Shown: piece after piece, positions 9,081 to 13,148 of the stretch
Layout of the letters: every line of letters begins with the position of its first letter
Numbering within the stretch: the first letter of the stretch is position 1
Source: Spirogloea muscicola
Lineage: Eukaryota; Streptophyta; Zygnematophyceae; Spirogloeales; Spirogloeaceae
NCBI GenBank assembly: GCA_009602725.1
Contig: WELB01000217.1
Location: 30,540-51,073 of the forward strand
Length of the DNA: 20,534 bases
Reading direction: 5' to 3'
The notes under the pieces: model-generated
Databases searched by the model: none
Seen by the model: only the letters and a program-made list of their open reading frames with translations
What the model was told of the DNA's origin: nothing
Program-made: the position numbers and the translations under genes

Positions 9081-12000
9081 ATGGCGGCCCTGCCAGCACC
9101 TCCAGGTGAGGCCCGCTGGGCCATTTCATCATCAATTTAAACATTAAGCGCCGGCCGCCATGGCACTCCACCAGCTCTGTGCTTTCTGGCCGATCTGGCC
9201 AGGGCGAGCAGGCGCGACAGGCGCCAGTAAGCTCTGCGATGGTGGCTTAATTTCGTCTGCAGAAGGCGTAACAGCCGCAGGTATATCAAAGGGAGTCTAG
9301 TCCAAGCGTTGCACTGGTCAGGGAAGTTATCAGAATAGCAGCCGCCAAGTAACTTCTCACCAGCTCATCGAGAAATTTGCTCCTCGTACCAACCCGGCCT
9401 GGCCACTCGGAAGGTACTGAATGTGCGCATCGCCTGTGATGTAGCTGCTACCGGCGCCAACTCTCGCTTGATGACAGTCTCCAGCGGCGAGACTGAGTCA
9501 AGATTGGGCACGTCATTGAGGGCTAAGAGTCAAGTGAGTTGCTCACAGTCGAATATGCGGCTGAAGCATCTCCACAGGAGGGAAAATGGTAGAGGTTTTC
9601 AGTTCTTGTGTTGTCATGGCACGCTTTCTCTCCCTGAGTTGCTTTTCTAGCTGATGATCATGGAACCCTTGCCAGTCCCCATTCAACAGTCTAAGTGGCT
9701 ATGACCAGCTTCTTTACCCAGGTTGTTCTGGCCGGCACGCAGACATTTACAACTGGCTTGTTCGCACCCATCAAGTCCCTGCCCCAAGAGCATCTGGAAG
9801 CTGTGAGTTGCAACTCTGTCCTTCTTGACTTTTACTTTGAGAACCACGGCTACAGACAAGTGACTGCTTCTTTTCGCAGCGTTGGTTGAGCCGAGTGAAT
9901 TGCCTAGTCCCAATCGCTGCTGCACCACAGCAGTCGCTTAACAATTGCCCGCTTATAAATTGGTCCTATTTGCTTTGGGGTGCAACTGATTTCTCTTCTG
10001 TGCTTTATGCAGCTTGCACCTGGGCCTACACCCACACACTCAGCAAGGAGGTACGACGCCTCCTGGTTTTCAGGTTCCCTTTCCCTATCCTAAACTGCAG
10101 CATCATTCTCTATTCAGCAACTTGGCCTGCCAGACCCTGAAAACTATGGCTCAACATAGCAGAAACAGGTTTCTTGCAACCTGTATCTGCCTTGCGACCT
10201 CTTGGCTGTAATCAAAGTCATATCTTGCAAATGTCCACTGTGAATGAACGGGCAGATGTCACTGCTGTCGCAGATTGGTGCTGCGACGATTTTTACATAG
10301 TGCATGGACAAGCTCAAAGCTCCACTGTGAGAAAGGGAATGTTCCATGTTTTATGCCGGCTTGCGTCATGCAGGCTGTGTATCCAGGTCATGAAAACTGG
10401 AAGCAGCGGAATCAGTACAGAGCAGATGGAAAAGTTGCAGTCTTTAGGAGGAGTGGTTACAGATGATGCTGTGCCCGAAGGTCATCAAGGGCTCCATGGT
10501 TTTCTCTATGGCGACAATGGGGCAGGTTGGCCCATCTCTGATTTGGTGCTGTTGCCTGTTCAAGAAGGCACTGAATATGTCTCCTGGTCATGATTGGTCG
10601 GGTAATCTTGGTCTTGCCCTACTTGCAGATGTTCATGATGCACCGACATCCACCTACCAAGCAGAATCTGGTCAGGATGACGGGTCTACTGTGATGTTGT
10701 TCTCCAACTATGTAGACCCAAGGTAACGTTTCAGATATTCTTTGGCACATCTTTCTATTGGAAAAGGAGAGTGTATGTCTTTACCTTTTATAGGGTTGGA
10801 GTCTGTGCAGCCAAGCAGGTCAGGCTGTTATCTAGCTTGGGGAGAATGTAGATTATTTGCTTTCCAGACATTTTCAGCTAACTTACACACATAGTGAGTT
10901 GTATTACATGGCTGCAGATACAAGCCATCTTATGAGTTGATGTCAGATTCTGTGCTATGCAACATGGATCTTGTTGACATGACTGTGCAGGGACGGGGTT
11001 AAGTTTGCCGGGGTGTACGCAATATATGCTGAGGATGGTGCATTGCAGTATATTGGTTACTCCAGAAATGTTATTCTTACTTTGAAGGTCAGTACCAAGA
11101 CGGCGGCCATGGTTCTTTTCTGCACGGGTTGATCGTTTATACTTAACCAGACATCCATGTATACTTCACCACGATATCAGGAAAAATATGTTGTGTGCAG
11201 CTATGCTTGCAGTGGAAATTTCTGACATCCTAGTATTTGTGCAGGCTCATCGGAGTAGAGTTGGATCTGCCAGATGCTCGGCGGTCCGTGTGAAGATGTA
11301 CACTGAGGCAGCCATGGTCACACGAGCTAGACTTCAAGAGGAATGTGAGCTCTGGCTTGCACAAGGTGCTCCACCACCAGGAAACAGCACTGAGCGGTGA
11401 GGAGCGTCCTTAACATCCCTAACCTAGAATTCTAAACCCTAAACCCTGGTGAACGATGTGAAGTCCTGCTTGGTTTCACATTCTCTTGACAGCTTCTGCC
11501 TTGGACCACGTTCTAATACTGTGGACACAATGGAAGGATTACCATGATTTTGAAGGCTGTCAATACTGCTCAATGCAGGGCTTCGTGGGAGGGGACAGCA
11601 GGCACTGTGGCAGCCTACATGACAGAGGAGGACAAGGCGGCTTATGAAGAGAAGAAGCTGAAGATGAGGAAGGCCATGGGGGAGAATCTGTATGATGATG
11701 TGGAAGGGGAGACAGAGGACTCTAAGACACGCCGTCTTCGGCTGCTGCAGGTCAATTTTCACAGACCCTCGCTTACCTTTCATGCATAAGCCAAGCCAAA
11801 CAGCAAGTGGTGGCCTCCCCTTGCTATCTCAGTGAGCCTTGAAGCCTCCTACACGTTAGTCAGTTGGTAGGCAGCAAGCATGAACTACACAGCTGAATGC
11901 TTCGTGTTGAGTGTGAAGTCCGTTGGAGTCCAGTGATTGAGAAGTGGAAGTGTCAGGCATCCATGTGTGTCGAAGTCGGATTGACAGGCTTAGCTAGACA

Positions 12001-13148
12001 TGTGGGTTGGAGCGCTTTATGTCAATGGGCATCAATATGCTTGTGCAGGCAGTAGAGGGCGACGATTGGAGCAGCGTGATTGATGGCCAAACAACAGAAA
12101 CGCTGCACGAACAAGAGCCTACCACTTCTGCGCAGACAGGCAGCTCTGTCACAGATGCAGCTGCCGCAGTCCCTGGACAAATTGTTAGCCCGTTCGCGAG
12201 GCCTGGAGGGCTCTTGCTGGGCAGTCAGGAGTCTGCTGCTGAGCTGGAATTGACAGCTGCCAATGTCGATATGGTCTTGAATGATGTGCGGCCTTATTTA
12301 ATTGCGGACGGAGGCAATGTTGAGGTTGTTGGGGTACAGGACGGCATTGTGGCACTCCGCTTGCAAGGTGTGTACCATTCAATCAGTACATTGTTGCCCT
12401 AAGTGGACACCAGTGTTGTGCACCCCCCTTGTGGCTATTCCTATTTCTCAGATTGGGTCCTGCAAGCCATTTTGCCACAATTGGGTAGCTTTATGATCTT
12501 GCACATATCCCTGCTACTCTACGTTATGCTCTTGAATTAGTTGATCAAGAGTGTTATTCCTATACTGCATGTCTTATGCTAGTGAGTCCTTCATTGTCCA
12601 TCACTGGAGCTTTCCCCCGCACTCAAAGGAGTGTTTCACTTGCAGGAGCTTGCGGCACCTGCCCGAGCAGCACATCAACTATGAAGATGGGCATTGAGAG
12701 AGCCCTTCAAGCCAAGTTCCAAAGCTCCTTAAGGGAGGTGGTGCAGGTGGACAAGATGGACTTGGGAGCTACAGTAGAGGTGAGAGTCAATCTTGCGGTC
12801 CCAAGGTTTAGACTACAAAGTGTTGAACTAAGTAAGTGGTCATGGTGGCGCCACAGTATGTAGGGCCTCCTGATACTGGTATCAAAGATGTTGAAAGACA
12901 GGCGTGCACGTCATGTTTTCTTCTTGACATCGTTCTTCATGCTCGCTCAGAGTTTGGACGCCTTTTTGGAAGGCTTGCGGCCAGCTATCACAAATTATGG
13001 GGGGAGCGTGGAGGTTGTGAGTGTGGACAGGGTCAAGGGTGCGTGCCTCATTGACTTCAAAGGCCCTGCACCAATCAGCATGGGCATTCAAGCTGCCGTC
13101 AGGGACAAATTTCCTGACATGCGGACTGTGAATCTTGTCAGTCCTTAA
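9081..13148 (+). CDS. GIY-YIG / tandem NFU-domain protein, probable plastid Fe-S carrier, 14-exon model
   Basis: NFU proteins bind a [4Fe-4S] or [2Fe-2S] cluster on a CxxC motif and pass it to apo-proteins; plastid NFUs serve photosystem I and other targets. Exons: 9081-9105, 9263-9280, 9364-9533, 9722-9802, 10013-10050, 10118-10168, 10374-10525, 10629-10722, 10991-11087, 11245-11396, 11579-11750, 12049-12367, 12646-12779, 12951-13148; 1701 nt, 566 aa, TAA stop. Exons 7-14 are firm. Exons 1-6 are chosen because splice consensus and phase close exactly; they encode a Ser/Arg/Thr-rich leader that could be a transit peptide. Residues about 215-290 are GIY-YIG-like (GVYAIY at 217-222, YIGYSRN at 230-236, PPPGN at 285-289), resembling the GRXS16 N-terminal domain. 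Residues 294-350 are a charged, probably helical linker. NFU domain 1 spans about 416-495 (RPYLIADGGNVEVV; GACGTCPSST with Cys459 and Cys462). NFU domain 2 spans 502-566 and lacks CxxC, as in plant plastid NFU1-3. A TGTAA at 13153-13157 is too near the stop to be a convincing poly(A) signal. Confidence 0.85.
11426..11447 (+). repeat. Short interstitial telomere-like motif (telo-box) in an intron
   Basis: CTAAACCCTAAACCCT, about two units of the plant-type CCCTAAA repeat, lies inside intron 10 of the NFU gene. The same motif serves as the telo-box in plant promoters of housekeeping genes. Its intronic place here gives no clear role, and two units can occur by chance. Confidence 0.6.

What the first reader, a model, noticed from the sequence alone, without database searches (positions are those of the whole stretch)
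10991..13148. Plastid-type tandem NFU protein fused to a GRXS16-like GIY-YIG domain
The plus-strand gene encodes a GIY-YIG-like domain (GVYAIY ... YIGYSRN ... PPPGN) ahead of an NFU domain with CxxC and a second NFU domain without it. From established knowledge, Arabidopsis plastid NFU1-3 have the two NFU domains but no GIY-YIG part, whereas the plastid monothiol glutaredoxin GRXS16, also an Fe-S carrier, has a GIY-YIG-fold N-terminal domain. Finding the same accessory domain on a second plastid Fe-S carrier suggests it has a shared role there (partner docking, redox control or nucleic-acid contact). I do not know whether this fusion has been described.
Basis: partly seen in the sequence, partly recalled or inferred. 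Interest (0 to 1): 0.75.

Follow-up and report, generated by a model that had tools for sequence, protein, structure and literature searches.

The report
Algal plastid iron-sulfur carrier, extra domain
This is a probable green-alga version of an already described chloroplast iron-sulfur carrier protein (NFU1 with a GIY-YIG-like front part); the added detail is that the front part matches, almost end to end, a small separate protein found in some cyanobacteria.

Summary
Eight exons (10374-13148, +) encode a GIY-YIG-like domain, an NFU domain with CGTC, and a degenerate second NFU domain. The genome carries three diverged copies; all keep these splice sites, have no exon indels and show Ka/Ks 0.07-0.11: one gene under selection.

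The architecture is not new. Couturier et al. 2013 (PMC3721309) described GIY-YIG plus two NFU domains in some algae, a moss and spruce, and noted the likeness to GRXS16. Przybyla-Toscano et al. 2021 (PMC8003979) described Chlamydomonas NFU1.

What I add tests the 2013 guess of two cyanobacterial ancestral genes. Cyanobacteria have two related stand-alone proteins. The algal front part matches 'type 2' almost end to end (167 bits, both flanks) against 61 bits for 'type 1'. GRXS16 scores better with type 1 (59 vs 45), but a core-only tree resolves neither.

The Arg and Glu positions of UvrC-like nucleases are not kept, so a docking or redox module is likelier than a nuclease. One Cys is present in 40 of 40 cyanobacterial rows and all three NFU1 copies; it aligns with the only Cys in the matched part of AtGRXS16, probably the reported redox Cys123.

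The parts
10013..10050 (+). probable upstream exon (tentative)
   Evidence: open frame joined to the next exons and AG/GT borders in all three copies; not the first exon
10134..10168 (+). probable upstream exon (tentative)
   Evidence: as above
10374..10525 (+). exon; holds the type-2 motif VPxxHxGLHxFLY
   Evidence: three copies, no indels; aligned with cyanobacterial type 2
10629..10722 (+). exon
10991..11087 (+). exon; first half of the GIY-YIG core (GVYAIY, YIGYSRN)
11245..11396 (+). exon; second half of the GIY-YIG core, ending PPPGN
11275..11277 (+). conserved Cys codon of the GIY-YIG part
   Evidence: Cys in 40 of 40 cyanobacterial rows, 3 of 3 NFU1 copies and the 2lwf row; Val in the alga's GRXS16
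11579..11750 (+). exon; type-2 C-flank motif YEEKKLKxRKAM
12049..12367 (+). exon; end of the type-2 block (DDWSSVI), linker, start of NFU domain 1
10462..12102 (+). span (introns included) of the block that matches the cyanobacterial type-2 protein, residues 30-240 of the joined frame
   Evidence: 167.3 bits, model positions 11-218 of 220; coordinates
12265..12725 (+). NFU domain 1 (intron included)
   Evidence: PF01106 85.9 bits; coordinates
12646..12779 (+). exon; second half of NFU domain 1 with CGTC at 12651-12662
12951..13148 (+). last exon with stop; degenerate NFU domain 2 at 12963-13130
   Evidence: PF01106 21.5 bits, E 2.6e-4, below cut-off; coordinates

Best explanation
It is the alga's NFU1-type plastid Fe-S cluster carrier, of the same architecture as the fusion proteins already described in algae and plants. 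A near-complete cyanobacterial type-2 GIY-YIG-like protein (about 210 residues) was fused in front of a tandem NFU. The first NFU domain binds the cluster through CGTC and passes it to clients; the second has lost its cysteines. The front part most likely does not cut DNA and serves for docking and/or redox control, possibly through its conserved Cys. Shown here: one selected gene, domain order, homologies, absence of the UvrC-like Arg and Glu positions. Inferred: plastid location, cluster carrying, docking or redox role.
For: Selection and shared splice sites over three copies; NifU, 2z51 and 2lwf matches; type-2 model 167.3 bits with N-flank 26.9 and C-flank 67.1; no stand-alone type 2 found in this genome, where its only good matches are the three NFU1 copies. 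Arg position Ser/Thr/Gly and Glu position Cys in NFU1. Cys in 40 of 40 cyanobacterial rows and 3 of 3 NFU1 copies. PMC5890173 (passage) reports a disulfide between Cys123 of the AtGRXS16 GIY-YIG domain and its CGFS Cys.
Against: No RNA, targeting or biochemical data. The same passage of PMC5890173 reports nuclease activity of the AtGRXS16 domain, which lacks the same positions. Cyanobacterial rows keep a Glu one helix turn earlier (40 of 40), so a shifted active site is possible there; NFU1 has Gln. The Cys is Val in the alga's own GRXS16. No Fe-S gene was seen among shared neighbours of types 1 and 2 and none of 80 cyanobacterial NFU loci holds type 1 or 2.
Confidence: 0.6

Rival explanations
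1. The front part is an active plastid nuclease, and the NFU part supplies metal or redox control for it (the metal idea is in Couturier et al. 2013).
For: GIY and YIG motifs and the Asn of PPGN are kept in 3 of 3 NFU1 copies; PMC5890173 reports endonuclease activity of the AtGRXS16 domain (passage); PMC3721309 proposes it (passage).
Against: The Arg that is invariant in 9 of 9 UvrC-like rows is Thr, Thr, Gly in NFU1, and the Glu position is Cys; Pfam GIY-YIG is below cut-off.
Confidence: 0.15
2. The front part has no function of its own beyond a spacer or stability element left over from the fusion.
For: Many dicots do without it (PMC8003979, passage) and the plain tandem NFU in this genome lacks it.
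Against: It is held under selection: the front exons have few amino-acid changes among three copies (per-exon counts) and keep motifs shared with cyanobacteria.
Confidence: 0.15
3. Two neighbouring genes were read as one (exon-joining error).
For: No transcript data; the 5' end is unresolved.
Against: One frame runs through eight exons in three diverged copies without stop or indel; the type-2 block ends and the NFU domain begins inside one exon, 12049-12367; the same fusion is published for other algae and plants.
Confidence: 0.03

Closest known systems
GIY-YIG-NFU fusion proteins (Chlamydomonas NFU1, Cre17.g710800; PMC3721309, PMC8003979)
   Same: N-terminal GIY-YIG-like part followed by an NFU domain with cluster cysteines
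   Different: PMC8003979 says CrNFU1 lacks the second NFU domain; here a degenerate one is present, as PMC3721309 says for some algae. Sequences of the published proteins were not compared: none is held in these tools
Arabidopsis NFU1-3 (plastid)
   Same: Tandem NFU, first with CxxC, second without; 2z51 (NFU2) is the best PDB match
   Different: No GIY-YIG part (PMC5890173 and PMC8003979, passages)
GRXS16 (AtGRXS16, PDB 2lwf)
   Same: Homologous GIY-YIG-like core, E 4.1e-7
   Different: Carrier part is a CGFS glutaredoxin; lacks the type-2 flanks and scores better with type 1
Cyanobacterial type-2 stand-alone protein (my label; L108-L131)
   Same: End-to-end match to the front part, 31-39% identity in 24 rows
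   Different: Free-standing, about 220-230 residues, no NFU part; found at full-length strength in 25 of 386 genomes

Membership tests
GIY-YIG-NFU1 (CrNFU1 type) | GIY-YIG-like domain N-terminal to NFU in one reading unit | tested here: met
GIY-YIG-NFU1 (CrNFU1 type) | NFU domain with CxxC | tested here: met
   CGTC 12651-12662; 85.9 bits
GIY-YIG-NFU1 (CrNFU1 type) | Second, Cys-less NFU domain (the two papers disagree) | tested here: met
   21.5 bits, E 2.6e-4, under the 27-bit cut-off
GIY-YIG-NFU1 (CrNFU1 type) | Plastid targeting | not tested
   start codon and transit peptide unresolved
GIY-YIG-NFU1 (CrNFU1 type) | Transfers Fe-S clusters | not testable with these tools
   needs biochemistry
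Active GIY-YIG nuclease | GIY and YIG motifs with both Tyr | tested here: met
   3 of 3 NFU1 copies; second Tyr is Phe in GRXS16 and in 10 of 16 type-1 rows
Active GIY-YIG nuclease | Arg of the helix after YIG | tested here: not met
   Thr, Thr, Gly against invariant Arg in 9 of 9 UvrC-like rows
Active GIY-YIG nuclease | Glu before the W/L-I pair | tested here: not met
   Cys in NFU1; the line-up with UvrC beyond the YIG stretch was made by eye, without gaps
Active GIY-YIG nuclease | Pfam GIY-YIG cut-off | tested here: not met
   18.9 of 22.6 bits; a UvrC-like control row scores 45.9
GRXS16 | CGFS glutaredoxin domain | tested here: not met
   NFU domains instead; a separate GRXS16 with CGFS exists
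Cyanobacterial type-2 protein | Type-2 N- and C-flank motifs around the core | tested here: met
   26.9 and 67.1 bits for the window copy
Cyanobacterial type-2 protein | Free-standing protein | tested here: not met
   fused to NFU here; no stand-alone match in this genome

The most novel reading that the evidence does not exclude
Two plastid Fe-S carriers each took up a different member of one cyanobacterial protein pair (type 2 into NFU1, type 1 into GRXS16), and the pair is an old non-nuclease accessory of Fe-S carriers whose invariant Cys forms a redox switch with the carrier's cluster cysteine.
Probability: 0.25. Interest if true: 0.65.

Novelty: already known. Interest (0 to 1): 0.35.

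Why it matters
The fusion itself is published, so this gene mainly adds another alga. The useful part is that the accessory block can be traced to free-standing cyanobacterial proteins that can be knocked out and tested. If these help Fe-S carriers, the fusions would point to the role of an uncharacterised cyanobacterial family and of the puzzling GIY-YIG part of GRXS16.

Tried and rejected
Core tree: 89 columns and 45 rows do not decide between one and two origins; the best tree joins NFU1 with GRXS16 (85/79) with a long-branch warning. I do not use it as support for two origins. Rows dropped before it and before the models: L107 and L133 (same genes as L102 and L096), L103 and L104 (same as L109 and L108), L132 (broken copy). 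L012's GRXS16 was not entered.

A scan of bacterial genomes with the 5-row GIY-YIG alignment confirmed no relative, nor did viral contigs; the whole-genome profile search did. Plasmids: no type-2 match. Neighbours within about 1.5 kb of type 2 (24 loci) and type 1 (17 loci, one gene twice): among the clusters printed (those in 4 or more loci, at most nine per type, one example of each read by eye) I saw no Fe-S gene; a sugar-transporter-permease-like frame on the other strand lies upstream in 12 of 24 type-2 loci. No type 1 or 2 in 80 cyanobacterial NFU loci with up to 3 kb on each side. The glutaredoxin about 40 kb upstream on the window's contig carries CPYC, so it is not GRXS16.

A label (R27eq) is two residues too far; one search gives the position used here.

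Full report
Observation. The window lies in a 153-Mb assembly of 471 contigs (G000:C217:30540-51073). Joining exons 10374-10525, 10629-10722, 10991-11087, 11245-11396, 11579-11750, 12049-12367, 12646-12779 and 12951-13148 gives one open frame of 438 residues without a fixed start. Two further copies lie on C56 (L009) and C68 (L010). Across the three copies the splice sites are kept, the exons have no indels (with slightly different borders; final borders), Ka/Ks is 0.09, 0.11 and 0.07 for the three pairs, and the introns differ more (for example 84 of 103 and 232 of 268 aligned bases identical between window and L009) and most carry gaps. Two more upstream exons, 10013-10050 and 10134-10168, keep borders and frame in all three copies. 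Further up I could not settle the model; L010 lacks a stretch there.

Domains. NifU: 85.9 bits for domain 1 with CGTC, 21.5 bits (E 2.6e-4, under the 27-bit cut-off) for domain 2 without CxxC. GIY-YIG: Pfam 18.9 of 22.6 bits for the window copy and 15.5 for L010, no match exon by exon in the genome, but PDB 2lwf, the N-terminal domain of Arabidopsis GRXS16, at E 4.1e-7. The best PDB match of the joined protein is 2z51, Arabidopsis NFU2.

Setting. PF01106 finds 12 matches in the genome: a plain tandem NFU in three copies (C206, C195, C222; the frame in L001 has no GIY-YIG part) and this gene in three copies. The GIY-YIG query finds, besides this gene, weak places on C168 and C256 (E 0.02 and 0.035), which lie in a GRXS16 with CGFS. 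PMC8003979 says that GRXS16 is almost never found outside the green lineage (passage), so the host is most likely a green alga or relative; I did not identify the species.

Literature. Couturier et al. 2013 (PMC3721309, passages) describe, in some algae, P. [quoted passage not shown] they did not find it in the angiosperms analysed. Przybyla-Toscano et al. 2021 (PMC8003979, passages and part 1 of the tables) describe CrNFU1 as GIY-YIG plus NFU without the second NFU domain, with proteins of similar make-up in many algae and in all terrestrial plants except dicots. The architecture is therefore already known. This gene agrees with the 2013 account on the second NFU domain.

Origin of the front part. 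A profile of NFU1 and GRXS16 cores matched 13 of 19 cyanobacterial genomes at E <= 1, 12 of 19 at E <= 5e-13 (a twentieth handle was not held). The proteins fall into two kinds. A three-row profile (two type-2 proteins and NFU1) over 386 genomes of the phylum, drawn evenly, matched 105 of 386 at E <= 0.001: 25 of 386 hold a match of 179.9 bits or more over most of the model (type 2), and each of these 25 also has a weaker core-only match of the type-1 kind. As the profile is of type 2, the type-1 count is a lower bound.

Models rebuilt from cyanobacterial rows only (24 type 2, 16 type 1) score the window's NFU1 with 167.3 bits for type 2 (model positions 11-218 of 220) and 60.9 bits for type 1 (positions 33-136 of 180). 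The type-2 flanks alone give 26.9 bits (N side) and 67.1 bits (C side). The type-1 N-flank finds nothing and its C-flank gives 5.7 bits, near noise (best of 200 shuffles 2.3 bits for that model, 5.1 for any model). The alga's GRXS16 scores 58.7 bits with type 1 and 44.6 with type 2 and matches no flank model alone. Identity of NFU1 over aligned positions is 31-39% to type 2 (24 rows) and 21-26% to type 1 (16 rows). The 24 and 16 rows are those whose loci were cut out, not all matches. This supports the 2013 guess for NFU1; for GRXS16 the preference is modest. The core tree does not decide: it places NFU1 with GRXS16 at 85/79, and the AU tests reject none of the four other groupings tried (NFU1+T2 p 0.218, GRX+T1 0.411, NFU1+T1 0.139, GRX+T2 0.295). 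None of the 80 NFU loci of cyanobacteria shows type 1 or 2 beside it, and each holds one NFU domain.

Function. Ten UvrC-like stretches from the same cyanobacteria were fetched (name recalled); nine were aligned, one was dropped because a motif filter missed it; one of them passes PF01541 with 45.9 bits. They show an invariant Arg in the helix after YIG, a Glu and an Asn. At the Arg position type 1 has Ser in 16 of 16, type 2 Ser or Thr in 24 of 24, NFU1 Thr, Thr, Gly, GRXS16 Ser in 2 of 2. At the Glu position NFU1 has Cys, type 2 Arg or Lys, GRXS16 Trp, type 1 Glu in 6 of 16; three residues earlier a Glu stands in 40 of 40 cyanobacterial rows, but Gln in NFU1 and Ser or Thr in GRXS16. The Asn is kept in 3 of 3 NFU1, 24 of 24 type 2 and 13 of 16 type 1 rows. 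hhalign lines up only 23-24 columns with UvrC (probability 37, 9 and 28% for pooled, type 1 and type 2), so beyond the YIG stretch the residue comparison is mine by eye. I take a docking or redox role as likelier than a nuclease. The most suggestive residue is a Cys present in 40 of 40 cyanobacterial rows, 3 of 3 NFU1 copies and AtGRXS16, but Val in both copies of the alga's GRXS16 that I read. PMC5890173 (passage) reports that Cys123 of the AtGRXS16 GIY-YIG domain may form a disulfide with the CGFS Cys; that this is the same residue is my inference, as it is the only Cys in the matched part of 2lwf.

What is not shown: expression, start codon, transit peptide, plastid location, cluster binding, any activity of the front part. 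Papers not named here were seen only as search listings. PMC1564403 (passages) does not hold the words glutaredoxin, NifU or cyanobacter; PMC8256493 and PMC3816324 were seen as passages. I found no paper that describes the type-2 protein in the searches, apart from the remark in PMC3721309; the library lacks most subscription journals and I did not read every listed paper.

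Noticed in passing
window 10374-13148, L009, L010; G000 C206, C195, C222: The assembly holds three diverged copies of this gene and of the plain tandem NFU gene (synonymous divergence 0.13-0.19 for this gene), as if three genomes were present (a hybrid or triploid).
   Followed up: partly
G000:C217:385-570, C68:282583-282768, C56:38954-39136: A glutaredoxin match lies about 38-42 kb upstream of this gene on all three contigs; in the window's contig it carries CPYC, so it is not the GRXS16.
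   Followed up: partly
L108-L131 (type 2); L093-L102, L105, L106, L134-L137 (type 1): Two related cyanobacterial protein kinds of which the six rows scanned and the two all stay below the Pfam GIY-YIG cut-off; the two type-1 rows scanned against NCBIfam match no fitting family.
   Followed up: partly
L132 (G175:C8:3668-4292): A type-2 copy that looks broken: a TAG inside the match and a second piece in another frame. Described only.
   Followed up: no
window about 11431-11448: A short CCCTAAA-like (plant-type telomere-like) repeat in the intron after exon 11245-11396.
   Followed up: no
window 9081-10010: The stretch upstream of the firm exons is partly conserved among the copies but with indels, and L010 lacks part of it; first exons and transit peptide remain open.
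   Followed up: partly
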